Notes: generated by a model from the letters alone, not told the origin. Positions 30,450-43,707 are shown, counted from the stretch's first letter. The stretch is DNA of 64,000 nt from Terriglobia bacterium (GCA_020073485.1 JAIQFB010000002.1:1-64000), one strand, 5' to 3'. Numbers and translations: made by a program.

Positions 30450-30793
30450 GGAACCTCCCACACTTGCGTTAGCGGAGCCGGGGACAAACAATCTGCGCTG
30501 ACGCGGGAGAAGCCCGAACCATGGCAATCCATGAAAGGCCTTGCACGAACACGAAACCCGGATGCCCGAATTCATCTTGGTAGTACGCAGGCTTCCGCGC
30601 CCAATTCAGGAAACTGGACTTCCCCACTGGACGGGAATAGTAATCCATTTCTTCTGAAAAGTCACTATCTGTGACAGTTCGCCCAAAACGTGCGCGGCAT
30701 GGGAGGTGGCGGCGTCACAGGAACGCCGTGTTCAATTGTGAAACGAAAGTTTAGTTATCCGTGGATTAGGATTACCGGCTGAGATTCTAGTTC
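30450..30793. other. 344-bp gap upstream of FG-GAP gene
   Basis: It separates two minus-strand genes and should hold the promoter of the FG-GAP protein gene. The only structure seen is a 5-bp inverted repeat GTCAC / GTGAC at 30661-30675, too short to interpret. Frames running through 30450-30575 extend the FG-GAP gene upstream but lack signal-peptide character. I see no RNA gene. Confidence 0.5.
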
Positions 30794-31708
30794 CTACTTG
30801 CGCGCGGGCTCAAAAACTCGCCAATGGAATGCAAACGAGTCGTCGCGGTGAGCCAGAAGGTAGGAAACGCTGTGGCCGCCGGGATAAAGATGGAATTCAT
30901 GAGGGATCTTCAGCGCATCCAGGGCCTGGTGCATTTCACTCGCACCGGTATAAAAGCCAAAAGAGTCTTCGGTGCCGCAATCGAAGTAAATTTTCATTTT
31001 TGAAAGAAGAGCGGCATTCTGTTTCGCCAAAACAAACGGGCTGTTCAGGTTCCAGAATTTCAAGTCGATGGGATTTCCGAAGACTTTGGTCAGCAGCTGC
31101 GCCGCCGGGTTTCCCGAGGAAGCTCCCGCGTTGACTCCCATGGGCGGCTCGCGCATCAGCGCCGCGCTATGCGCGCTCACCGATCCGAACAATTCCGGAT
31201 GCGCAAACGCAATCCGCAACGCCCCGTAGCCTCCCATGGAGAATCCGGTAATCGCGCGGGACGCGCGCCCAGCCTGCACCCTGTAGCTGCGTTCGATATA
31301 GGGCATGAATTCGCGAAGGAAGAAGTCGCCATACAATGTCTTGCCGTCGCGTGAATTGATGTAAAACGTGTCCCGCCCGTCCGGAGCCACGACCAGAAAA
31401 TCGCCGACTTTGTGGTCGCGGCGCAAATCCTGCAACGCGTTCCATTCCCCATCCAGTACGGCCGACTGCGCGTTGCCTCCGAGCCCGTGCAACAGGTACA
31501 GAACCGGGTATCGCTGCGCCTGGGCTTGCGGCGCGGAATAGCTCGCGGGCAAGAACACGCAATAGCGCACCGAGGAATGCAGGATGGCGCTGCGCAAAGC
31601 GCGGCAATCCGCGCGTTCCTGCGCGCCGGCCGCGGTCGCCGCGGCAAGCGCAACAAAAACAACGCAGGCCAGGCGTGCCCATCGATACTGGTGCAGAATG
31701 CGTGGCAT
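30794..31708 (-). CDS. secreted esterase (esterase D / tributyrin esterase family)
   Basis: 304 residues. A signal peptide (ACVVFVALAAATAAGAQ) precedes an alpha/beta hydrolase of the putative-esterase family. The nucleophile elbow is GFSMGGYG (Ser157), the likely acid is Asp248 or Asp243 in DCGTEDSF, and the histidine is in PGGHSVSY (His279). YPVLYLLHGLGG gives the oxyanion-hole region. It probably cleaves acyl or acetyl esters outside the cytoplasm; the substrate is unknown. No clear ribosome site precedes the ATG. Confidence 0.85.
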   Translation of the reverse strand: MPRILHQYRWARLACVVFVALAAATAAGAQERADCRALRSAILHSSVRYCVFLPASYSAPQAQAQRYPVLYLLHGLGGNAQSAVLDGEWNALQDLRRDHKVGDFLVVAPDGRDTFYINSRDGKTLYGDFFLREFMPYIERSYRVQAGRASRAITGFSMGGYGALRIAFAHPELFGSVSAHSAALMREPPMGVNAGASSGNPAAQLLTKVFGNPIDLKFWNLNSPFVLAKQNAALLSKMKIYFDCGTEDSFGFYTGASEMHQALDALKIPHEFHLYPGGHSVSYLLAHRDDSFAFHWRVFEPARK

Positions 31709-32036
31709 AAAGTCGAAATTCGATTGTAGGGTCGCGACATCGTTGTAGCAAGCGAACGCCGCGCCCCTTCAGCCCGCGCGGCGTCTTACAGAATCCTTAC
31801 GGCGCACGCACGACTTCCTAATCCCGCATACCGCATGATTCCTTTGCAAGCAGGTACCACTGGAATGACCGGCAAGAGCACACCGAGATGTGACCAGGCG
31901 CACAGCGCAGCGGACCAGCGAACCATTATAAAGGGCGTCAGAACGCGGCCCTTTCAGGTGCTCAGCAAGCCGCGCTGGGTGAATGACTCCGATCCCGGAT
32001 CCTCACCGTTCAGCGCTCGCGCCGGAAGGAGGCCGT
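31709..32036 (+). promoter_or_regulatory. 328-bp leader region upstream of kdp cluster
   Basis: Probable promoter and leader for the small membrane protein and kdp genes. TATAAA at 31927-31932 is a -10 candidate without a good -35, as expected for an activator-dependent promoter. Immediately after it, AAAGGGC (31930-31936) and GCCCTTT (31948-31954) form a 7-bp hairpin with an 11-nt loop. No KdpE site can be named with confidence, and the divergent esterase gene must also start from this region. Confidence 0.35.
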
Positions 32037-32342
32037 ATGGCTATTAAACTTTTTCTCTTGCTCAATGCCATGGGCGTCATTTTTCTTCTGTATGTTCTGG
32101 CCAACTTTTGGAAGGAAGCCAGCCGGACAAGATCCGATGTCCGGCCCGATGAATTCGATTTCATGCAGGAGGAGAGACCGGCGGTGCTCGTCGTGACGCA
32201 CCTGATCGCTCATGGCACGCACGGTAATGGGAGCGTTGTTCCGCTGCAGCTTCGGGAGCCGGCTTCCGCCGGCAAGAAGAATCGTCCAGGCCGCGGCGCC
32301 GCAATTTATGAGATGGAGGTAAAGCGGTATTCCGCGAGGTGA
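32037..32342 (+). CDS. small membrane protein upstream of kdp operon
   Basis: 101 residues from an ATG with one of the best ribosome sites in the window (AAGGAGG, 4 bp spacing). Residues 2-22 are a hydrophobic helix (AIKLFLLLNAMGVIFLLYVL), followed by a soluble charged tail with no recognised domain. The tail beyond about residue 45 could be a fortuitous extension, but the start signal is strong. It sits 89 bp before the first kdp micro-ORF on the same strand, so it may be part of the potassium operon. Confidence 0.5.
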   Translation: MAIKLFLLLNAMGVIFLLYVLANFWKEASRTRSDVRPDEFDFMQEERPAVLVVTHLIAHGTHGNGSVVPLQLREPASAGKKNRPGRGAAIYEMEVKRYSAR

Positions 32343-32431
32343 TATTTGTAGTGACCGGTGCGAGAACCAGGCTTCTGTTACATGAGAATGAAAAAGAGTC
32401 AGGGAAAGCAATCGAAGGAGCTCTGAAAATC

Positions 32432-32518
32432 ATGCTGGACACGATTTTTACCATATCCACTCTGGTGTTTTTTGTGGGGGCGGTATTGTACGTGAAATTC
32501 TGCGATGGATTGAGGTAG
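32432..32518 (+). CDS. 28-residue membrane micropeptide preceding kdpF
   Basis: A 28-codon frame with AAGGAG 11 bp before the ATG. The product is one hydrophobic helix with a short tail (MLDTIFTIST, LVFFVGAVLY, then VKFCDGLR). It ends 4 bp before kdpF, has the same length as KdpF and shares its first five residues (MLDTI). The KdpF ribosome site lies in its last codons, so the two are coupled. It could be a diverged KdpF duplicate or a separate small subunit of the pump. Its ending VKFCDGLR differs clearly from KdpF (MLRPEKF). Confidence 0.6.
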   Translation: MLDTIFTISTLVFFVGAVLYVKFCDGLR

Positions 32519-32522
32519 CGAG

Positions 32523-32609
32523 ATGCTGGATACGATTGTATCGCTGGCGGTGTGCGGTGGATTGCTGATTTACCTGGTGTACGCGATGCTGCGGCCGGAG
32601 AAGTTCTGA
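32523..32609 (+). CDS. kdpF: potassium-transporting ATPase small subunit KdpF
   Basis: 28 residues: one transmembrane helix (VCGGLLIYLVYAML) ending RPEKF, which is the characteristic end of KdpF. KdpF is a lipid-like stabiliser of the KdpFABC complex, binding KdpA in the inner membrane. A GAGG ribosome site lies within the end of the preceding micro-ORF. kdpA begins 2 bp downstream. Confidence 0.88.
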   Translation: MLDTIVSLAVCGGLLIYLVYAMLRPEKF

Positions 32610-32611
32610 CC

Positions 32612-34378
32612 ATGACCAACAATGGATGGTTCCAAATTCTGTTTTTTCTGCTGGTGGTGCTGGCGCTGACCAAGCCGCTGGGCGCGTTCATGACGCGGGT
32701 GTTCAACCGCGAGAAGACGTTTCTGGATCCGGTGCTGCGGCCGATTGAGAAGTTGTTGTACAGGCTTACGGGCGTGGACGAAGCCACCGAGATGGGCTGG
32801 AAGGAATACGCCGGGGCGATGCTGATCTTCAGCGGCGTGACGCTGGCGCTGACGTATCTGATCGAGCGGGTGCAGAACCATCTGCCGCTGAATCCCCAGC
32901 ACCTCCCTGCCGTGGCGCCGGATCTGGCGTTTAACACCGCCGTTTCGTTCACGACGAATACGAACTGGCAGGCGTATGTGCCGGAAACCACGATGTCGTA
33001 TCTGACGCAGATGACGACGCTGGCGTATCACAACTTCATATCCGCTGGGGTGGGGATCGCACTGGCCATTGCCGTGGTCCGGGGAATCGCGCGGCGTGAA
33101 AAGGACACCATCGGGAATTTCTGGGTGGACATGACGCGCGCGGTGCTTTGGGTTTTGCTGCCGCTCTGCCTGGTAGGTGCGCTGTTCCTGGTCTGGCAGG
33201 GCGTTCCGCAAAATTTCAAGCCGTACGCGACCGCGCAGCTCGTGGATCCGCAGACGGTGCAGACGACCGGGGCGGATGGTAAAACAACCACGCAGGTCAT
33301 CAAAGAGCAAACGATCGCCCAAGGGCCCACGGCGTCCCAGGAAGTGATCAAGGAGTTTGGCACCAACGGCGGCGGCTTTTTCAACGCCAATAGCGCGCAT
33401 CCTTATGAGAATCCCACGCCGCTCTCGAACCTGCTTGAAATGCTGCTTATCTTTGCGATCGGTGCAGGGCTGACCTATACCCTGGGGCAAATGACGGGCT
33501 CGCCGCGGCACGGCTGGGCGGTGTGGTGCGCGATGGCCATCTTGTTCCTGGTGGGCGTCACGGCGGCGTATTCTGCCGAGGCGCGCGGAAATCCATTGGT
33601 GGAGACTTCCGCGAATCACGTGCAGCCCGCCGGAAACATGGAAGGCAAAGAGATCCGTTTCGGCATCGCGAATTCCGCGCTATGGGCGGTGGTCACCACC
33701 GACACCAGCTGCGGCGCGGTGAACTCGATGCACGATTCATTCACGCCGCTCGGCGGGATGATTCCACTGATCAACATGCTGCTGGGAGAAGTCATCTTCG
33801 GCGGCGCGGGCTCGGGCCTGTACGGAATCATCGTCTTCATCATTCTCTCGGTATTCATCGCAGGGCTGATGGTGGGGCGCACGCCGGAATACCTGGGCAA
33901 GAAGGTCGAGGCGTTCGACGTGAAGATGGCCATGCTCACGGTGCTGATTTATCCGCTGTTCGTCCTGGGGTTCACGGCCATCTCCGTCGTTGCGCCGAAA
34001 TTCGGATTATCGAGCCTGGCCAACGCCGGGCCGCACGGGCTTTCCGAAATCTTTTACGCTTATGCGGAAGCGGGCGCGAATAACGGCTCGGCGTTCGCGG
34101 GCTTGAACGCCAACACGCTCTGGTACAACACGACGATCGCCACGACCATGCTGTTCGGCCGGTTCTTCATGGTGATTCCGGTGCTGGCCATTGCCGGGAG
34201 CCTGGCGCGCAAGAAACACGTGCCCGAATCGGCCGGAACGTTTCCGGTAACCACGCCGCTATTCACCGGCTTGCTCATCTCCGTCATCCTGATCGTTGGC
34301 GCGTTGACCTTTTTCCCCGCGCTCAGCCTGGGCCCGATCCTGGAGCACCTGCTGATGAACGCGGGCAAGACTTTCTGA
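32612..34378 (+). CDS. kdpA: potassium-transporting ATPase, K+ channel subunit KdpA
   Basis: 588 residues, 10 or more hydrophobic segments. KdpA is the K+-binding, channel-like subunit. The four pore-loop motifs of the selectivity filter are visible: [26 protein letters not shown] and LNANT. The ATG at 32612 is chosen because it follows kdpF by 2 bp and gives the usual N-terminus; frames upstream would run through kdpF. Full length for the family. Confidence 0.96.
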
Positions 34379-34385
34379 GGACCCA

Positions 34386-36422
34386 ATGGAACGCAAATCG
34401 AAATCGCTGTGGGACACAAAGATCGTGACGCGCGCGGCCGTGGATTCGTTGGTGAAGCTCGACCCGCGCACGCTGATGAAGAATCCGGTGATGTTCGTGG
34501 TGGAGATCGGCGCGGCGCTGCTGACCTTCACGGTGATTCGGAATCAAATGCATCACCAGGCGGGATTCGCCTTTGAACTGCAGATCACGCTGTGGCTGTG
34601 GTTCACCGTGGTGTTCGCCAACTTCGCCGAAGCCATGGCCGAAGGCCGCGGCAAGGCGCAGGCCGACACGCTGCGCAAATCGCGCACCGAGACCGTTGCG
34701 CGAAAGGTGAAGGCCGACGGCACGATTGAGGAAATCTCCGGATCGAAACTCCGCTCGGGGGACGTGGTCATCGTAACCGCGGGCGAATTTATTCCCGGAG
34801 ACGGCGAAGTGATCGATGGCGTCGCATCGGTGGACGAATCGGCGATCACCGGAGAATCGGCGCCGGTGATTCGCGAATCGGGCGGCGACCGCTCGGCGGT
34901 GACCGGCGGCACGCGCGTGCTCTCGGACGAAATCAAGGTGCGCATCACGTCCAATCCCGGCGAGACGTTCTTGGACCGCATGATCAAGATGGTCGAGGGC
35001 GCTTCGCGGCAGAAAACGCCGAACGAAATCGCGCTGAACATTCTGCTCTCCGGGCTGACGATTATTTTTCTGCTGGCCGTGGCCGCGCTGCAGCCCATGG
35101 CGATTTATTCCGGCGCGCCGCAAAGTCCGTTCGTGCTGTGGTCGCTGCTGGTGTGCCTGATTCCGACGACGATCGGCGGGCTGCTTTCGGCCATCGGCAT
35201 CGCCGGGATGGACCGCGTGATTCAGCGCAACGTCATGGCCATGTCCGGCCGCGCCGTGGAAGCCGCGGGCGACGTGGATACGCTGCTGCTCGACAAAACC
35301 GGCACGATTACGCTGGGCAATCGCCAGGCGACCGAGTTGATACCCGCTCCGGGCGTGTTGGATGCGGAACTGGCCGACGCGGCGCAGCTCGCCTCGCTCG
35401 CCGATGAAACCCCCGAGGGGCGCTCGATCGTGGTTCTGGCCAAGGAAAAGTACGGCTTGCGCGGACGCCCGCTGTCCTCGCTCGACGCCACGTTCATCCC
35501 CTTCTCGGCGACCACGCGCATGTCGGGCGTCGATTTCGACGGCCGCGCGATTCGCAAGGGCGCGCCGGATGCGATCAAGAAGTACGTGATCGAGCAAGGC
35601 GGCACAGTCCCGATACAGGTGGACGAAGTGGTGCAAATCGTGGCCAGCTCCGGCGCGACGCCTTTGCTGGTCGCCGCTAACAACCGGCTGCTGGGCACCG
35701 TGCGCCTCAAGGACATCGTGAAAGGCGGGATGAAGGAACGCTTCGATCACCTGCGCGCGATGGGCATCCGCACCGTGATGATCACCGGCGATAACCGCCT
35801 GACCGCCGCGGCCATCGCGCAAGAAGCGGGCGTCGACGATTTTCTGGCCGAAGCCAAGCCCGAAGACAAGCTCGCACTGATCCGCAAGGAACAATCGAAA
35901 GGAAAACTGGTGGCCATGACCGGCGACGGCACCAACGACGCGCCCGCGCTGGCCCAGGCCGACGTGGGCCTGGCCATGAACGCCGGAACGCAGGCCGCGA
36001 AAGAAGCCGGCAACATGGTGGACCTGGATTCCAACCCGACCAAGCTGATCGAAATCGTCGAAGTCGGCAAGCAACTGCTGATCACGCGCGGCGCGCTCAC
36101 CACGTTTTCGGTGGCCAACGACGTGGCGAAATATTTCGCCATCATCCCCGCGATGTTCGCCGGAGCTTTCCCCGTGCTGCAGGCGCTGAACATCATGGGC
36201 CTGAAGACGCCGGAGTCGGCGATCCTGTCGGCCGTGATTTTCAACGCGCTGATCATCATCGCGCTGGTGCCCCTGGCCTTGCGCGGCGTGCAATATCGCC
36301 CGCTGGGCGCTTCGGCCCTGCTGCGCTGGAATCTGCTGGTCTACGGCGTGGGCGGAATCGTCGCGCCGTTCATCGGCATCAAGCTGATCGACGTGATCAT
36401 CACCCGGCTGCACTGGGCGTGA
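34386..36422 (+). CDS. kdpB: potassium-transporting ATPase, ATP-binding subunit KdpB
   Basis: 678 residues. The P-type ATPase subunit of KdpFABC. It shows TGES (155-158, the actuator; its serine is the known inhibitory phosphorylation site in E. coli KdpB), the phosphorylation motif DKTGTIT (Asp303), KGAPDAI in the nucleotide-binding domain and [11 protein letters not shown] in the hinge. The ribosome site GAGGA overlaps the kdpA stop. It couples ATP hydrolysis to K+ uptake through KdpA. Confidence 0.96.
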
Positions 36423-36461
36423 GGAAACAAGTTTCAGAAGTGCGCATTTGAGGAAAAACAA

Positions 36462-37034
36462 ATGAAAAAGAATTTCATGATTTCGATCTGGATGACCATC
36501 GCAACGACGATCCTGCTCGGCGTCGTCTACCCGTTCGTGGTGACCGTCCTGGCACAAGTGCTCTTCCCCAGCCAGGCTAACGGTTCGCTGATTACGCTAA
36601 ACGGAAAAGTGGTCGGCTCGCGCCTGATCGGCCAGCCGTTTTCCTCCCCCGGCTATTTCCGTTCGCGCCCCTCGGCCGCCGGCAACGGCTACGACGCGCA
36701 AAATTCCGGCGGCTCCAACCTCGGCCCCACCAACAAATCGCTGATCGATCGCGTAAGCGGCGACGCCCAAAAAGCCCAGGCCGAAAATCCCGCGAGCCCC
36801 GTCCCCATGGACCTGATCACCACGTCCGGCTCCGGCCTCGATCCCCACATTTCACCGGCCGCCGCCGCATTCCAGGCCCCGCGCGTGGCCAAGGAACGCG
36901 GCATGACCGAAGCCGACGTCACCACCCTCATCGCCAAACACACCGAACCCCGCCAACTCGGCTTCCTCGGCGAACCCCGCGTCAACGTCCTGGAACTCAA
37001 CCTCGACCTCGACGCCGTTCATCCGATGCATTAA
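36462..37034 (+). CDS. kdpC: potassium-transporting ATPase subunit KdpC
   Basis: 190 residues. One N-terminal transmembrane helix (MTIATTILLGVVYPFVVTVL) and a periplasmic domain with the family motifs GSRLIGQPFSSPGYFRSRPS, GGSNLGPTN and SGSGLDPHISPAAA. KdpC is required for assembly and high-affinity function of the pump. It follows kdpB by 39 bp with GAGGA before the ATG. Last gene of the kdpFABC operon. Confidence 0.95.
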   Translation: MKKNFMISIWMTIATTILLGVVYPFVVTVLAQVLFPSQANGSLITLNGKVVGSRLIGQPFSSPGYFRSRPSAAGNGYDAQNSGGSNLGPTNKSLIDRVSGDAQKAQAENPASPVPMDLITTSGSGLDPHISPAAAAFQAPRVAKERGMTEADVTTLIAKHTEPRQLGFLGEPRVNVLELNLDLDAVHPMH

Positions 37035-37100
37035 CCTGCACTTCCGCAGCGCTTGCCCATCAGGCCCTCCTCAAACCGAACCATCGGCGGGCCTCGAGTA

Positions 37101-37177
37101 GCGTAGGCTTCAGCCTGCGCGGTTTAGAGCAACTGGGGCAAAGAATGGAAAACCGCGCGGGCTGAAGCCTACGTTAC
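37101..37177. repeat. palindromic intergenic element, copy 4
   Basis: Facing arms at about 37104-37125 (GTAGGCTTCAGCCTGC then GCGGTTT) and 37149-37173 share the GGCTTCAGCC core with copies 1 and 5. It lies between the convergent kdpC and kdpE genes, so it may also serve as a bidirectional terminator. Confidence 0.75.
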
Positions 37178-37217
37178 CAAAATCCGCGACGCGGCCTTTT
37201 CTACACACTCCGCGTCG

Positions 37218-37931
37218 CTATTTCTTCTTTGGTTTGCCAGGCGCGGCACCAGTGGGCTCAAACCGGTAGCCTACCCACGGATCGGTGTGAATGTACTTGG
37301 GGTGCGACGGGTCCGGTTCAATCTTTTTGCGCAACTGGTTAATAAACACTCGCAGGTATTCCGTTTCATTTCCGTAGTCCGGCCCCCAGACGGCCTGCAG
37401 CAGGCGGCGGTGTTCCAGCGGCTTGCCCTGGCTCGACACCAGATGCCGCAGCAGATCGAACTCCTTCGGCGTCAGCCGCACCGGGTTGCCCTTGACCAGC
37501 ACTTTCCTGCGCTCGAAATCGATTTCCAGATCGTCGGAAACGTAGGAAGGGATAGGCTCGGCGGAGGTGGTCCTGCGCAGGGCCGCGCGAATGCGCGCCA
37601 GAAGTTCCTCGACGCTGAAGGGCTTTACGACGTAATCGTCGGCTCCGGCATCCAGAGCCAGCACTTTGTCGTGCTCGGTATTGCGGACCGTCAGCATGAT
37701 GATGGCGACGTCGGACTGGTCGCGAATCTCGCGGCAAGTTTCCAGGCCTCCCATCCCCGGCATGTTGACGTCGAGTAGCACGAGCTCGGGGCGCTCCTTG
37801 CGCATGATTTCCAGAGCTTCTTCGCCGCTCTTGGCCTCGACCACCGAGTATCCGTTGCTCGATAATGTGGTCCGCATTACGCGGCGAATTTGCGGCTCGT
37901 CGTCCACAACCAGAATCGTCGATGTGCTCAT
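37218..37931 (-). CDS. kdpE: response regulator KdpE
   Basis: 237 residues, OmpR/PhoB class. The receiver domain has DD at 10-11, phospho-acceptor Asp54 (LLDVNMPG) and Lys in YVVKPFS. The C-terminal winged helix contains LTPKEFDLLRHLVSSQGKPLEHRRLLQAVWG, in two adjoining blocks, and VFINQLRKKIEPD, typical of KdpE. It should activate the kdp promoter under K+ limitation. Its ATG overlaps the stop of the kinase gene (ATGA). Confidence 0.92.
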   Translation of the reverse strand: MSTSTILVVDDEPQIRRVMRTTLSSNGYSVVEAKSGEEALEIMRKERPELVLLDVNMPGMGGLETCREIRDQSDVAIIMLTVRNTEHDKVLALDAGADDYVVKPFSVEELLARIRAALRRTTSAEPIPSYVSDDLEIDFERRKVLVKGNPVRLTPKEFDLLRHLVSSQGKPLEHRRLLQAVWGPDYGNETEYLRVFINQLRKKIEPDPSHPKYIHTDPWVGYRFEPTGAAPGKPKKK

Positions 37932-39388
37932 CGGTGTTCCGCCGTCCCCCTGACAATTGGCAGGCTGAATGAAAATACGGACCCTTGGCCCAACTGGCTG
38001 ATCACGCCGATTGTCCCGCCGTGCGCTTCCACGATGGCTTTGGCGATCGGCAAGCCCATGCCCGTGCCCTGCACCCGGTAGCGTTGATCCGAACCTCTGT
38101 AAAACTTGTCGAAAATGAGGGCGAGCTCGGCGTCGGCAATTCCGGGTCCTTGATCAGCGACGCTGAATGAGACAAAATCTCCCTGCTCCTCCGCGCCGAT
38201 CGTGATGGGGCGGTCGGGAGCGGAATACAAATTCGCGTTCTCGATCAGATGGACGAGCACTTCCTTGGCCCGCGCCAGGTCCGCGCGCACCAGCAGGTCC
38301 TGATTCTTCATTTCGATTCGAACCGGCCGTGTTCCCAAAACACCCTTGCAGACATCCAGCGCCTCGGAGATCAGATCCACCACCCGAAGCGTTTCCATCT
38401 GCAGCTTGACCTCGCCCGCTTCCAGGCGCGCCATTTCGGCGGCTTCCCCGACCAGGCGGTTCAGCCGGTCGCACTCTTCATTGATGATATTCAGTAGTTC
38501 GATGCGCTGGCCGTCGTCGAGTTTCGCCGGAGAAAGCAGATTCGTGACCGAAACCTTGATGGACGTGAGGGGCGTGCGGAAATCATGCGCGATGGCGTCC
38601 AGCAGCGCCGACTTCAGGCGCTCCCCCTCGCGCGCCGCCTCGGTCTTCCCCACCATTTCGATGGCGCGGGCCCGCTCGATGGCCACGGCGATCAGCGACC
38701 CCAGAGCCTCCAGCGACGGCCGCGAAAGCACAGGGCCGGAGATGCCCACGCTGCCCAGAATGCGCGATCCCAAACGAAGCGGAGCGAAGCAGACGCTGTG
38801 CTCCTCATCCACCTCCATGTCCTCGCGCGCCACGATCGCTTTCAGGTGATCCGCGTCGAGTTGCGGCAGGTTCATGCCGGAACGGTAGACCTTCTGCTTG
38901 TCCGTCAGGAACACGGCCGCGGCGCCCACCTCAAACGTCTCCACGATCTGGCGCGGGATGGCGTTCAGCAACTCGATGGGATTGCCGGCGGTCAGCAACC
39001 GTTGGCTGAATTTGTACAGGCGCTCGACTTCGCGGCGGCGGCGGTTGGCTTCTGCGGCCTGATTGCGTGCGCGCGTCGAGAGATCGCTGGCGAGAACGGA
39101 AGTTGCCAGAAACGTGATCAACGCCACCCAATTCTGCGGATCGGCAATGGTGAAGGTGCCCACCGGAGGCAGGAAAAAATAGTTGTAGGCCAGCGTGGCA
39201 ACCAGCGACATGAAGACGGAAACTGCGAGTCCCCAGAGAGTGGAAGCTCCGAGAACAGCGAGCAAATAAGTGAAGGCAATGGTCGTCGAATTGAAGCGAT
39301 GGGTCGACCGGTAGAATATGGTAATCGCCGCGACGGCAGCCAGAGCGGCCGCGTACCGGGCCAGTGTTATAGGCAGATTCTTCTTCAC
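37928..39388 (-). CDS. KdpD-like sensor histidine kinase, C-terminal half only
   Basis: 486 residues equal to the C-terminal half of KdpD. It has a four-helix DUF4118 membrane region (about 10-105, including LLAVLGASTLWGLAVSV), a GAF-like domain, a dimerisation domain with phospho-acceptor His268 (AIAHDFRTPLTSIK) and an ATPase domain (LIENANLYS, DQGPGI, GTGMGLPIAKAI). It lacks the N-terminal KdpD and USP domains, which are encoded separately on the other strand 52 bp away. It overlaps kdpE by 4 bp. It phosphorylates KdpE by inference. Confidence 0.9.
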   Translation of the reverse strand: MKKNLPITLARYAAALAAVAAITIFYRSTHRFNSTTIAFTYLLAVLGASTLWGLAVSVFMSLVATLAYNYFFLPPVGTFTIADPQNWVALITFLATSVLASDLSTRARNQAAEANRRRREVERLYKFSQRLLTAGNPIELLNAIPRQIVETFEVGAAAVFLTDKQKVYRSGMNLPQLDADHLKAIVAREDMEVDEEHSVCFAPLRLGSRILGSVGISGPVLSRPSLEALGSLIAVAIERARAIEMVGKTEAAREGERLKSALLDAIAHDFRTPLTSIKVSVTNLLSPAKLDDGQRIELLNIINEECDRLNRLVGEAAEMARLEAGEVKLQMETLRVVDLISEALDVCKGVLGTRPVRIEMKNQDLLVRADLARAKEVLVHLIENANLYSAPDRPITIGAEEQGDFVSFSVADQGPGIADAELALIFDKFYRGSDQRYRVQGTGMGLPIAKAIVEAHGGTIGVISQLGQGSVFSFSLPIVRGTAEHR

Positions 39389-39440
39389 GGCGCGATTCTA
39401 GCCTAGCATTTATTGCGCATAATAGAAGAGAATATCTGCG
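39389..39440. promoter_or_regulatory. 52-bp divergent promoter region of split kdpD genes
   Basis: The only space between the divergent start codons of the kinase gene and the KdpD-sensor gene. It contains CATAAT (-10-like, plus strand) about 20 bp before the right-hand ATG. Promoters of the two genes must overlap, which suggests joint control. Confidence 0.45.
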
Positions 39441-40565
39441 ATGACCAAGACGCCCGAGCAGTGGCTGGAAGAGGTCTCCCCTCAGGAACGCACCAAGGGA
39501 ATTCTGAAGCTTTTTCTTGGCTACGCCCCGGGAGTCGGCAAGACCTACGGCATGCTGGGCGAAGCCATACGCCGGCGCAGCCGTGGCGAAGATGTGGTCG
39601 TCGGCATCGTGGAAACGCACGGGCGCAAAGCCACCGCGGAACTCGCCGCGCAACTCGAGCAAGTCCCAATGCGCAAGATCGAATACAAGGGCACGGTCTT
39701 CGAGGAGATGGACCCGGACGCCATTATCAAGAGAAATCCAAGAGTCGTGCTCGTGGACGAACTGGCCCACACCAACATCCCCGGCAGCAAACACCGAAAA
39801 CGGTATGAAGACGTCCTCGACCTGGTCGAAGCGAAGATGGAAGTACTTTCCACGGTGAACGTGCAGCATTTGGAGAGCATCGCTCCCACCGTCGGCGCGA
39901 TTACCGGCATCAAAATTCGCGAAACCGTTCCCGATTGGGTGCTCGAACACGCCAACGAAATCGTGATGGTCGACCTGACCCCGGAAGCCCTGCAAAACCG
40001 TATGAAACGCGGCGAGGTGTACCACACTGAAAAAGTCGACCAGGCTCTCAGGAATTTTTTCCGCCGAGGCAACCTGATCGCGCTCCGGGAACTCGCCCTC
40101 CGCCAGGTGGCCGAACAGGTGGACCGCAGCCTGGAATCCTACATGGAGCAAAAGAATATTCAGGACCTGTGGCCTGTGCGCGAACGTATCGCCGTGTGCT
40201 TCAGCTCGAACCCCAGGGCGCAATATCTGATTGCGCGCGCGGCGCGCATGGCCCGGCGGATGGACGCCGAGTTATTCGCGATCTACGTCGATATCGGCCA
40301 CGACACTTCCGAGCAGGATCAAAACTCGCTCAACGCCAACATTCAATTTTCGGAAAGCCTCGGCGCGAAAGTGGTCAAACTCAAGGGGAAAGAAGTGGCC
40401 GCCGCGACCGCGGAATTCGTGCGCGAAAAACACGTAACGCAAGTGATCTTCGGCCGCACGGCTGTCGAAGGCTGGCGAAAATATCTCTACATGACCGCGA
40501 TTCACCGCTTCCTGCGCGACGCCCCAGCGGTGGATGTCCACATCGTGACGCAGGAAAACGATTAA
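39441..40565 (+). CDS. kdpD: stand-alone KdpD N-terminal sensor domain plus USP domain
   Basis: 374 residues. The KdpD domain covers about 20-230, with Walker A GYAPGVGKTYGML (27-39), GIVETHGRK, VLVDELAHTN (Walker B) and VNVQHLESI. A universal-stress-protein domain covers about 245-374. The protein ends before the membrane and kinase parts, which are a separate gene on the opposite strand. In complete KdpD these cytoplasmic domains sense K+ or bind ligands and set kinase versus phosphatase activity. Here the protein must act in trans on the kinase, by inference. A palindromic element follows. Confidence 0.9.
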   Translation: MTKTPEQWLEEVSPQERTKGILKLFLGYAPGVGKTYGMLGEAIRRRSRGEDVVVGIVETHGRKATAELAAQLEQVPMRKIEYKGTVFEEMDPDAIIKRNPRVVLVDELAHTNIPGSKHRKRYEDVLDLVEAKMEVLSTVNVQHLESIAPTVGAITGIKIRETVPDWVLEHANEIVMVDLTPEALQNRMKRGEVYHTEKVDQALRNFFRRGNLIALRELALRQVAEQVDRSLESYMEQKNIQDLWPVRERIAVCFSSNPRAQYLIARAARMARRMDAELFAIYVDIGHDTSEQDQNSLNANIQFSESLGAKVVKLKGKEVAAATAEFVREKHVTQVIFGRTAVEGWRKYLYMTAIHRFLRDAPAVDVHIVTQEND

Positions 40566-40570
40566 GAACT

Positions 40571-40645
40571 GTGGCACAGGCTTCAGCCTGTGGGGTTTTG
40601 ATTTTTGCAGGCCCCGCACAATCCACAGGCTGAAGCCTGTGCCAC
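40571..40645. repeat. palindromic intergenic element, copy 5
   Basis: Two perfect 23-bp inverted arms (40571-40593 and 40623-40645) with a 29-nt centre; each arm contains CAGGCTTCAGCCTG. It lies 5 bp after the stop of the KdpD-sensor gene, between two convergent genes. Confidence 0.85.
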
Positions 40646-40673
40646 CAAGATTCGCTTTCCCGAGAAATGAGAG

Positions 40674-41843
40674 TTACAGCGCGCGCAATGCCACGGAAAC
40701 AGGCTGCCGCGCGGCTCGGATCGCAGGCGGCACGCCGCCGACCAGCCCCATGAACAACGCAAACGCAATGCCGCCAAGCAACAATTCCGGCGTCACGCGA
40801 AACGCAAACGCGAGATACGTGAACGTCTGGAAATTCATGGTCCCGGTCGTCAGCCCATTCAACGGAATCACCAGAAGACACCCGAGCAATCCGCCCAGAA
40901 AAGAAATGAGGAGCGCCTCGATCAAAAAGGAGAACACCACGCTGCCGGCGCCGAAACCCAGCGCGCGCATGGTGGCGATTTCGCGCGAACGCTCCGCGAC
41001 CGCCGAATACATGGTATTGAGCGCGCCGAACACCGCGCCGATGCCCATCACCACCGCCACAATCGTCCCCAGGACCACAATAAGCGTCGTGAGTGTTTTC
41101 GATTGCTTGTCGTAGTAATCGCGCTCCCGGTCCACCTCGACAGTCATGCGCGGGTCGGCCGTGAGCGCGTCCTTGAATGCGCCGAGCGCGCCGGGAGAGG
41201 TCAAGTGCGCCGTGACAGACTGGAAGACGTTTTCCGGGCGGTGGTACACCTGGTTCACGACGTTTGCGTCGGCCCACACTTCGGAATCAAACGCGCCGCC
41301 GCCCGAATCGAAAACACCAACCACCTTCCACGCGCCCCCGCCGAACTTGATGGTGTCGCCAAGATCCAACCCCTGATAAGACGTCGCCGCGTGATTGCCG
41401 ACCACGAGTTCATTCAATCCGGGCTGGAAAAATCGCCCGGCGACGATCTTGATGTTGTCACGCACGCGCAACACCATGGGCGATACGCCGCGAACTTGCA
41501 CATTCGCGTCGGTGCCGCTGGATTTCAACGGGAATGCCGCGATCACCACGACCTCAGCGCTCACGAGCGGGCCCGCGTCGGATCGCGCGACGCCTGGCGC
41601 GTCCTGGAGTACCTTCACCTGCTCCAGCGAAACGGCGCCATCGATTTCCGAAGTCGAGCCCGCGCGGCGCACCATGGCATTTTGCGTCGATCCCGAACTG
41701 ACCAGCGTCATCTTGAATCCCCGCGCCAGCGACATCATGGCCACGAAGACGGAGACCGTGCCGGCAATGCCCAGAATCGCGACGATGGCGGAAGTCCACC
41801 GCGCCCGCACGCTCCGCAAATTGTAGATCACAGGTATGGCCAC
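40674..41843 (-). CDS. FtsX/MacB-type ABC transporter permease (second)
   Basis: 389 residues. An N-terminal helix (SAIVAILGIAGTVSVFVAM), a periplasmic MacB_PCD-like domain to about residue 255, then three C-terminal helices of the FtsX fold including the SREIATMRALGFG coupling region. The GTG at 41841-41843 is chosen because it follows GGAGAG and sits 2 bp after the upstream permease stop; longer frames would overlap that gene. Last gene of the four-gene export operon. Confidence 0.9.
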   Translation of the reverse strand: MAIPVIYNLRSVRARWTSAIVAILGIAGTVSVFVAMMSLARGFKMTLVSSGSTQNAMVRRAGSTSEIDGAVSLEQVKVLQDAPGVARSDAGPLVSAEVVVIAAFPLKSSGTDANVQVRGVSPMVLRVRDNIKIVAGRFFQPGLNELVVGNHAATSYQGLDLGDTIKFGGGAWKVVGVFDSGGGAFDSEVWADANVVNQVYHRPENVFQSVTAHLTSPGALGAFKDALTADPRMTVEVDRERDYYDKQSKTLTTLIVVLGTIVAVVMGIGAVFGALNTMYSAVAERSREIATMRALGFGAGSVVFSFLIEALLISFLGGLLGCLLVIPLNGLTTGTMNFQTFTYLAFAFRVTPELLLGGIAFALFMGLVGGVPPAIRAARQPVSVALRAL

Positions 41844-41845
41844 GG

Positions 41846-42985
41846 TCAGACTCTCCGGATCGCATCCACCACGCGCAGGCGCATGGCCGAAAACGCCGGC
41901 AAGATTCCTCCCGCGGTTCCCACAAGGAGCGCCGTCCCGAATCCGGCGACAATCCAAATCGGCGGCAGATAAAAGTACGGCAAAATTCCCCCGGTGGGAT
42001 CGCCGCGCAGGCTGAATAATTTCGCCAGCAACAATCCCAATCCCCCGCCAACAAACGCGACAATCAGCGATTCCATCATCACCAGCAGCAGCACAAACCG
42101 GTTGGAGAATCCCAGTGCTTTCAGCACGGCCAGTTCCCCGATGCGTTCGCGCACCGCGATGGCCATGGTGTTCCCGGTCACGAGCAGGAGCGTGAAGAAC
42201 ACGACGCCGCCCACCGTGAGAATCAGGAACTCGATGTTGCCCATCTGCTTCACGAACGACGCGGCGAATTCCTTCTCCGTGTCCGTCTTGGTTTCAAACG
42301 GCGAGTTGGCGAATTCGGCGTCGATGGCCTTGGCAACCTTCACGGAAAGATCGGGTTCGGCCACGCGCACGACGTACCAGCCCACGTCCCCTTTGCCGAA
42401 GGCTCTGCGCTCGTCCAGATAATCGTAGTGAAACCAGAACTGCGTGGTGTCGTCCTGTGCGCGCGAGCCTTTATAGATTCCACGAAGGTTGAACTCCCAC
42501 GACCCGGTATAGATCGTGCCCCTGAGGGGAATACGGTCGCCCACCTTCCAGCCGAACCGCTCGGCCGTGTTCTGCCCGGCGATCGCGCCTTCGCGGTCCT
42601 CGGCAAATGCCTTCCACTGATCCTCCGGAATGATGAACTCGGGATACATGGCACGTTGATTTGCGACGTCCACGGCAAATTGCGGAAAGAAATTCTTTTC
42701 GTCCTGATACACGCCGCCAAACCAGTTCTGATAGGTCACCTGCTTGATTCCGTCCATGCGCAGCAGGCGGTCGCGATAGGAAAGCGGCAGCGGCTGAATC
42801 AACGACGTCTTGTTGATGACCACCAGGCGGTCGGCGCCGGCGATATCCACGCCCTGGCTGAATGCCCCGCGGACAATCACCAGCAGACCGAACAAAAACA
42901 GCGCGACGGCAAACGATCCGATCGTCAGCGACGTCCGCAACTTTTTCCGGAAAAGATTCGCGATCAACAGCGGCAGGAATTTCAT
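41846..42985 (-). CDS. FtsX/MacB-type ABC transporter permease (first)
   Basis: 379 residues, with the same FtsX design as the gene that follows: an N-terminal helix (SFAVALFLFGLLVIV), a periplasmic domain with RGIYKGSRAQDDTTQFW, and a C-terminal helical bundle with AVRERIGELAVLKALGFSNR. Its ATG overlaps the ATPase gene stop by 4 bp (ATGA). Two different permeases probably form a heterodimer around one ATPase dimer. Substrate unknown. Confidence 0.9.
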   Translation of the reverse strand: MKFLPLLIANLFRKKLRTSLTIGSFAVALFLFGLLVIVRGAFSQGVDIAGADRLVVINKTSLIQPLPLSYRDRLLRMDGIKQVTYQNWFGGVYQDEKNFFPQFAVDVANQRAMYPEFIIPEDQWKAFAEDREGAIAGQNTAERFGWKVGDRIPLRGTIYTGSWEFNLRGIYKGSRAQDDTTQFWFHYDYLDERRAFGKGDVGWYVVRVAEPDLSVKVAKAIDAEFANSPFETKTDTEKEFAASFVKQMGNIEFLILTVGGVVFFTLLLVTGNTMAIAVRERIGELAVLKALGFSNRFVLLLVMMESLIVAFVGGGLGLLLAKLFSLRGDPTGGILPYFYLPPIWIVAGFGTALLVGTAGGILPAFSAMRLRVVDAIRRV

Positions 42986-43707
42986 GGTTTGCCCGCTCCC
43001 TCCGGCGCATCCACCAAGCTTCCCTTTTCCAGATGCAGCGTCACCTGCGCCTGCTTCGCAACCGCCGGATCATGCGTGACCATCAGCACCGTCTTGCCAT
43101 ACTCCTGAACCAGGCGCCCGATCAACTCCATGATTTCATCGGCCGCCTTGCGGTCCAGGTCCCCCGTCGGTTCGTCGCACAGTAGAAATGTCGGATCGGA
43201 AACAATGGCGCGCGCAATGGCCACGCGCTGCTCCTGCCCTCCGGAAAGCTGCCGAGGGTAGTGCTTCATGCGATCCCCCAGGCCCACCAATTGCAGCGCG
43301 GTTTCCACGTGCTTCTTGCGGTCGGACTTGGAAAGTTTCGTGAGCAGCAGCGGAAGTTCCACATTTTGAAAAGCCGTCAGAACCGGGATGAGGTTGTACA
43401 TCTGAAAAATGAACCCGACGTGGCGCGCCCTCCAGTCCGTCAGCTTGCTCGCGGACATGTGCGTGATTTCGTCACCGGCCACGGTGATCGTTCCGGCGGA
43501 GGGAACATCCAGCCCGCCCAGCAGATTCAGCAGCGTGGTCTTGCCCGATCCGCTGGGACCCATGAACGCGACGAAGTCTCCGCTGTCGACATCGAGGTTT
43601 AGCCCTTGCAGGACGTGAATTTCCTCGCCGCCGCGCGTGTATTTCTTGTCCAGGCCGCGCACGTGAATCAGGCTCGCCGCGCCTCCGTTGCCGTCCACTC
43701 GTACCAT
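42982..43707 (-). CDS. MacB/LolD-class ABC transporter ATP-binding protein
   Basis: 241 residues. Walker [10 protein letters not shown] (50-58), signature [12 protein letters not shown], Walker [13 protein letters not shown] and H-loop [12 protein letters not shown] place it in the LolD/MacB/FtsE class. These ATPases power extrusion from the inner membrane or periplasm by mechanotransmission rather than transport through the membrane helices. The ATG at 43705-43707 is chosen for its GAGGA site 7 bp away. An in-frame start at 43818 would overlap the adaptor gene. Confidence 0.93.

What the first reader, a model, noticed from the sequence alone, without database searches (positions are those of the whole stretch)
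37218..40565. KdpD split into two genes on opposite strands
The KdpD sensor domain plus USP domain (39441-40565, plus strand) and the DUF4118 membrane-kinase half (37928-39388, minus strand) are separate genes starting 52 bp apart and pointing away from each other; kdpE follows the kinase. In textbook KdpD these parts form one polypeptide whose cytoplasmic N-terminus controls the kinase. Here the control must act in trans, and the two halves can be expressed in different amounts. The divergence cannot result from a simple frameshift; it implies inversion or independent assembly.
Basis: partly seen in the sequence, partly recalled or inferred. Interest (0 to 1): 0.68.

Follow-up and report, generated by a model that had tools for sequence, protein, structure and literature searches.

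The report
Divergently split KdpD potassium-regulator genes
In this soil Acidobacteriota genome the potassium regulator KdpD is two separate proteins encoded back to back; split KdpD is already known, but here the two genes stay together throughout one bacterial class, even where the pump they regulate lies elsewhere, which is a tidy new variant.

Summary
The layout is real. Window 39441-40565(+) encodes a stand-alone KdpD+Usp protein. 37928-39388(-) encodes a DUF4118/HisKA/HATPase histidine kinase, and kdpE overlaps its end. The genome has no full-length KdpD (three KdpD-N copies, all under 400 aa).

The split is not a local rearrangement. It occurs in 36 of 44 listed KdpD loci of the class and in 19 of 20 loci fetched from the window's own family. 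The divergent KdpD-N proteins form one well-supported clade, so the pair probably arose once.

Split KdpD is already described (Alicyclobacillus, Deinococcus, cyanobacteria). A 2024 paper names Acidobacteriota as a common place for it and shows that the N-half is a serine kinase that phosphorylates the pump subunit KdpB. So the N-half need not act on the histidine kinase. Its catalytic motifs, the KdpB target serine and a c-di-AMP synthase gene are present here.

What departs from published cases: KdpD-N sits back to back with the kinase rather than downstream of the pump, and the pump is unlinked in at least 9 of 15 genomes checked. In many relatives the two start codons are 18 bp apart, suggesting a shared bidirectional promoter. 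Verdict: new variant of a known kind, modest interest.

The parts
32523..32609 (+). kdpF, 28-aa subunit MLDTIVSLAVCGGLLIYLVYAMLRPEKF
   Evidence: read directly from the sequence
32612..34378 (+). kdpA (probable ATG start; mechanical ORF starts at 32552)
   Evidence: PF03814 7e-244, start inspection
34386..36422 (+). kdpB, with ITGESAPV carrying the equivalent of E. coli Ser162
   Evidence: TIGR01497 1078 bits; motif
36462..37034 (+). kdpC
   Evidence: PF02669 1e-76
37218..37931 (-). KdpE-type response regulator; first 4 bp overlap the kinase gene
   Evidence: Response_reg + Trans_reg_C
37928..39388 (-). split-off KdpD C-half: DUF4118 membrane domain, linker (GAF-like by position, no Pfam GAF hit), HisKA (H-box His268, AHDFRTPL), HATPase
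39389..39440 (.). 52-bp divergent intergenic region
39395..39400 (-). -10-like hexamer TAGAAT, 6 nt before the kinase GTG; hexamer of this type conserved in relatives (prediction)
39428..39433 (+). -10-like hexamer GAGAAT, 7 nt before the kdpD-N ATG (prediction, weaker)
39441..40565 (+). stand-alone KdpD N-half (KdpD domain + Usp domain), predicted atypical serine kinase
39519..39545 (+). Walker A, G-X5-GKT (G27-T35)
   Evidence: sequence
39756..39761 (+). Walker B Asp106-Glu107, equivalent of E. coli D109/E110
   Evidence: sequence

Best explanation
It is a split KdpD/KdpE system. The minus-strand protein is a K+-sensing membrane histidine kinase that phosphorylates KdpE to switch on kdpFABC when K+ is low. 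The plus-strand KdpD/Usp protein is a soluble atypical serine kinase that phosphorylates the TGES serine of KdpB and shuts the pump off when K+ is plentiful, probably gated through its Usp domain by c-di-AMP. The back-to-back arrangement lets the 'make the pump' and 'stop the pump' proteins be expressed from one short shared control region while remaining separate polypeptides. Shown here: the anatomy, motif retention, co-occurrence with KdpB, conservation and single-clade ancestry. Inferred from a homologue: the serine kinase activity. Inferred more weakly: c-di-AMP gating and shared promoter control.
For: Domain anatomy and clear homology to the KdpD-domain crystal structure 2r8r. Walker A G-X5-GKT and Walker B DE are intact in the window protein and in the intact KdpD-N proteins aligned with it; in E. 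coli D109, E110 and Walker A are essential (PMC11018627). KdpB keeps ITGES. A stand-alone KdpD/Usp chain phosphorylates KdpB and is stimulated by c-di-AMP. One diadenylate cyclase gene is present. KdpB and KdpD-N co-occur: KdpB above cut-off in 21 of 22 genomes with KdpD-N and 0 of 5 without (Fisher p 7e-5, not corrected for kinship). The same genome carries a second set with the same parts on C45. The 2024 paper states that separate ASK and HK chains are commonest in Acidobacteriota and Chloroflexota.
Against: No activity was measured. TGES is common to P-type ATPases, so the target serine is not by itself specific evidence. The S. aureus c-di-AMP motif (A/G/C)-X-S-X-S-X2-N-(Y/F) is only partly met (CFSSNPRAQ, first Ser kept, motif from PMC8214093); however the two Deinococcus proteins aligned here also lack it. 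In at least 9 of 15 genomes the N-half stays with the kinase and not with the pump, which a pump-only role does not predict. One genome (G394) has KdpD-N beside a kinase but no KdpB above the cut-off.
Confidence: 0.72

Rival explanations
1. One reading: the free N-half acts in trans on the histidine kinase and/or KdpE and so sets kdpFABC transcription, rather than (or as well as) acting on the pump.
For: In E. coli the separate KdpD(1-395) stabilises KdpE~P on DNA and gives constitutive kdp expression, and kinases lacking the N-domain cannot repress at high K+ (PMC2714519). Across the class KdpD-N stays next to the kinase; in most Acidobacteriaceae it is co-oriented with and directly upstream of kdpE, and the unit remains when the pump is 0.88-1.06 Mb away on the same contig (G094, G233, G329).
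Against: Linkage can reflect coordinated expression only. KdpD-N also occurs directly behind pumps in other Acidobacteriota families and keeps the Walker A/B residues of a KdpB kinase.
Confidence: 0.35
2. Both: the N-half is a serine kinase for KdpB and also a trans partner of the kinase/KdpE, so the two outputs of E. coli KdpD are preserved across two chains.
For: Combines the motif evidence with the linkage evidence and E. coli precedents for both activities.
Against: No direct evidence of interaction; the most complex account.
Confidence: 0.33
3. Recent inversion or breakage of a full-length kdpD, leaving two remnants with impaired function.
For: The two proteins together match the N and C parts of E. 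coli KdpD (NF007793 matched at 10-376 and 631-882).
Against: The arrangement is found in 36 of 44 class loci and 19 of 20 fetched family loci. The divergent KdpD-N proteins form one clade (100/100 support) apart from the full-length clade. The Walker A/B and H-box motifs are intact.
Confidence: 0.03

Closest known systems
Alicyclobacillus acidocaldarius split kdpD in two divergent kdp operons (Schleussinger et al. 2006, cited in PMC11018627; original not held)
   Same: kdpD split into N-part and kinase part, lying in two divergent operons (title)
   Different: [quoted passage not shown] here it is alone, back to back with the kinase, with the pump on the far side of kdpE or elsewhere in the genome
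Deinococcus radiodurans kdpD-N / SK-RR (PMC5716572) and Deinococcus plasmid loci L122, L123
   Same: Separate KdpD-N; kinase and response regulator in an oppositely oriented operon
   Different: KdpD-N is the last gene of the kdp operon and the pump lies between it and the kinase
Short KdpD/Usp atypical serine kinase of Deinococcus geothermalis (PMC11018627)
   Same: Same domain make-up
   Different: Activity demonstrated there, not here; its sequence was not aligned here
NCBIfam NF038185 'KdpD-like non-kinase potassium sensor'
   Same: Full-length match, residues 3-371 to model 4-372 of 373, E=6e-119
   Different: 397.5 bits is below the curated cut-off of 550
Full-length KdpD of E. coli and of other Acidobacteriota families
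   Same: All domains are homologous
   Different: One chain there; 53 of 106 listed KdpD places outside the class have frames of 800 aa or more

Membership tests
Split KdpD (separate ASK and HK chains) | KdpD/Usp domains and TM/HK domains on separate polypeptides | tested here: met
Split KdpD (separate ASK and HK chains) | no full-length KdpD in the genome | tested here: met
   (genome 97% complete)
[quoted passage not shown]
   window layout; the C45 locus of the same genome does meet it
KdpD atypical serine kinase | Walker A G-X5-GKT and Walker B Asp-Glu | tested here: met
KdpD atypical serine kinase | adenine-coordinating Trp39/Arg190 pair | tested here: inconclusive
   Tyr instead of Trp after GKT (Tyr also in P. 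syringae 2r8r); the E. coli sequence was not aligned, so R190 was not placed with certainty
KdpD atypical serine kinase | phosphorylates KdpB Ser162 | not testable with these tools
   target ITGES present in KdpB, activity unknown
c-di-AMP-gated KdpD | Usp motif (A/G/C)-X-S-X-S-X2-N-(Y/F) | tested here: not met
   CFSSNPRAQ: C, X and first Ser match; second Ser, Asn and Tyr/Phe do not
c-di-AMP-gated KdpD | diadenylate cyclase in the genome | tested here: met
   PF02457 E=2.5e-42
NF038185 KdpD_non_kinase | score above curated cut-off (550 bits) | tested here: not met
   397.5 bits
PF02702 KdpD domain | score above gathering cut-off | tested here: met
   306.5 versus 26.1 bits

The most novel reading that the evidence does not exclude
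In class Terriglobia selection keeps the pump-inhibiting kinase (KdpD-N) and the pump-inducing kinase together as one regulatory unit independent of the pump, driven in many members by a single symmetric -10 element giving two leaderless divergent mRNAs with starts 18 bp apart, and with KdpD-N acting on both KdpB and the HK/KdpE pair in trans.
Probability: 0.25. Interest if true: 0.5.

Novelty: new variant of a known kind. Interest (0 to 1): 0.3.

Why it matters
E. coli KdpD joins two opposite outputs, inducing the K+ pump and inhibiting it, in one chain, which makes them hard to separate. A naturally split pair with intact motifs, conserved across a whole class, allows each output to be deleted or titrated alone. 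The class also offers a natural contrast (pump adjacent or pump far away) against the published inference that read-through from the pump operon is what supplies the inhibitor.

Tried and rejected
A full-length KdpD elsewhere in the genome: none. A c-di-AMP (ydaO-type) or other known RNA switch in window 30500-43000: no Rfam match. Recent inversion or frameshift: rejected by conservation. Sigma-70 scan of 37000-40800: 2 promoter-like sites against 1.1 expected by chance, one on the kinase strand (39447-39419, TGGTCA-17-TATTAT), so no support by itself. The -10 tally of 24/25 is biased because start codons were chosen partly by the motif; the fairer version gives 25 of 27 against 9.5 expected from shuffles, and the sequences are related. 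The histidine-kinase tree was a quick search; it groups the divergent kinases at 97 but includes L027, which is also divergent and was only mislabelled 'tandem' in my list, on a very long branch. No paper on kdp gene order in Acidobacteriota was found in the library, so absence from the literature is not proven.

Full report
Observation. The reported genes are at the stated coordinates. The + strand protein (374 aa) has the PF02702 KdpD domain (E=1e-91) followed by Usp (E=1e-5). The - strand protein (486 aa) has DUF4118, HisKA and HATPase_c, and kdpE overlaps its 3' end by 4 bp. The start codons are separated by 52 bp. Immediately to the left on the + strand lie kdpF (missed by the mechanical ORF list), kdpA, kdpB and kdpC. 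The nearest named relatives are Terriglobia / Candidatus Acidiferrum MAGs, so the genome is a soil Acidobacteriota of that group.

Is there a full-length KdpD? No. The genome has three KdpD-domain places: the window and two adjacent ones on contig C45, with open frames of 379, 397 and 369 aa. Contig C45 starts with a second, co-oriented set: HK, kdpE, usp, kdpA-B-C, a methyltransferase-like gene, kdpD-N (degenerate), kdpD-N (intact), followed by another kdpB-kdpC-kdpA. So this genome carries three KdpB proteins above the family cut-off and no full-length KdpD.

How widespread is it? In 396 Acidobacteriota genomes searched with PF02702 and PF13493, the 150 listed KdpD places divide as follows. 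Within the window's class, 43 of 44 have frames under 500 aa; the exception, G036, also has a divergent kinase next to it. Outside the class, 53 of 106 are 800 aa or longer. A kinase immediately divergent from KdpD-N was read from coordinates for 31 class loci and from fetched DNA for 5 more (G281, G112, G241, G273, G249), i.e. 36 of 44. None of the listed places outside the class is divergent; there the kinase, where one was listed nearby, is mostly 6-12 kb upstream on the same strand with the pump between, as on C45. Within the window's own taxonomic family, 19 of 20 fetched loci have the divergent kinase.

Ancestry. A careful maximum-likelihood tree of 85 KdpD-N regions puts the window and all 32 other divergent proteins in one group (100/100) and the 14 full-length Acidobacteriota KdpDs in another (100/99). 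A quick tree of the kinases also groups the divergent kinases (97). The divergent pair therefore most likely arose once, early in the class. The midpoint root is for drawing only, so fission and fusion are not distinguished; PMC11018627 argues that separate chains were fused later.

Two sub-layouts. In most fetched Acidobacteriaceae the order is <HK | KdpD-N> kdpE>, usually followed by the pump. In the window lineage (window, L018, L020) kdpE has the kinase's orientation: <kdpE <HK | KdpD-N>. Linkage to the pump is loose. Of 15 divergent-type genomes searched for KdpB, the pump is not near the unit in at least 9 (0.88-1.06 Mb away on the same contig in G094, G233 and G329; on other contigs in the rest, with a tenth, G073, uncertain because both loci lie near contig ends). 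In L018, 97% identical in KdpD-N, the unit sits beside a pump that is 93% identical in KdpA to the C45 pump and 56% to the window pump, and DNA similarity to the window begins at window 37200, the end of kdpE. The regulatory unit, not the regulator-pump pair, is what has been kept.

Function. In E. coli the KdpD N-domain is an atypical serine kinase that phosphorylates KdpB Ser162; it works alone as KdpD(1-230), and a short KdpD/Usp chain from D. geothermalis does the same and responds to c-di-AMP (PMC11018627). The window protein has the Walker A form G-X5-GKT and Walker B Asp106-Glu107, and KdpB has ITGES. A diadenylate cyclase is encoded. KdpD-N and KdpB co-occur (21 of 22 against 0 of 5). 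This supports the pump-kinase role by homology. The c-di-AMP step is weaker: the S. aureus binding motif (PMC8214093) is only partly present, although the two Deinococcus proteins aligned also lack it. A transcriptional role in trans has E. coli precedent (PMC2714519) and is favoured by the linkage, so I keep it as a serious rival and think both roles may hold; the confidences given to these overlapping readings therefore do not sum to one.

Junction. Upstream of the kinase start codon a TAnnnT hexamer lies 6-7 nt away in 24 of 25 parsed loci. With a null that allows for choosing among start codons, 25 of 27 against 9.5 expected; the loci are related, so these are not independent. In nine or ten loci the two start codons are exactly 18 bp apart, and in several the same symmetric hexamer (for example TATGTT / TAACAT in L072 and L074) is suitably placed for both genes. 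The commonest spacing of start sites at bidirectional bacterial promoters sharing a -10 is 18 bp (PMC12825309). This suggests leaderless, bidirectional transcription in those genera; it is a prediction. The window has a 53-bp spacing with separate candidates TAGAAT (kinase) and GAGAAT (KdpD-N).

Known or new? Split KdpD is known: Alicyclobacillus 2006 (title cited in PMC11018627), Deinococcus (PMC5716572), cyanobacteria, and explicitly Acidobacteriota. The finding's headline is therefore not novel. What I did not find described is the back-to-back kinase|KdpD-N unit maintained across a class and separable from the pump; published cases have the N-chain downstream of the pump. That is a new variant of a known kind and of modest interest.

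Noticed in passing
same genome, contig C45 (locus L014: 10588-11691 and 11666-12841): Tandem KdpD-N genes: the first is degenerate (GKS in Walker A, Asp-Gly instead of Asp-Glu in Walker B, Arg-rich segment lost), the second intact. The same intact/degenerate pair occurs in L083, L088 and L121, and the degenerate copies form their own clade (100/100), so a pseudo-kinase partner seems to be conserved.
   Followed up: partly
L068, L070, L072, L074, L078, L085, L086, L087, L090 (kinase|kdpD-N junctions): The two divergent start codons are 18 bp apart with -10-like hexamers at leaderless spacing, matching the commonest spacing of bidirectional promoters (PMC12825309).
   Followed up: partly
L018 (226-4953) versus window 32523-37034: In a close sister the same regulatory unit stands beside a different pump (KdpA 93% identical to the C45 pump, 56% to the window pump); the DNA match to the window starts at window 37200.
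   Followed up: partly
L082, L084, L089, L092: A histidine kinase sits directly upstream of KdpD-N on the same strand with no pump nearby; in G394 (L089) no KdpB above the family cut-off was found in the whole genome, so KdpD-N there may have another target.
   Followed up: partly
window 32523-32609: kdpF, 28 aa, is present but below the size limit of the ORF list; kdpA probably starts at ATG 32612, not 32552.
   Followed up: yes
same genome, contig C45:14076-16121: A third kdpB, followed by kdpC and kdpA in the order B-C-A, just downstream of the second kdp set.
   Followed up: no
window 37100-37190 and 40572-40645: A short inverted repeat built on GGCTTCAGCCTG/CAGGCTGAAGCC appears on both sides of the regulatory unit (read); it looks like a dispersed palindromic repeat.
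   Followed up: no
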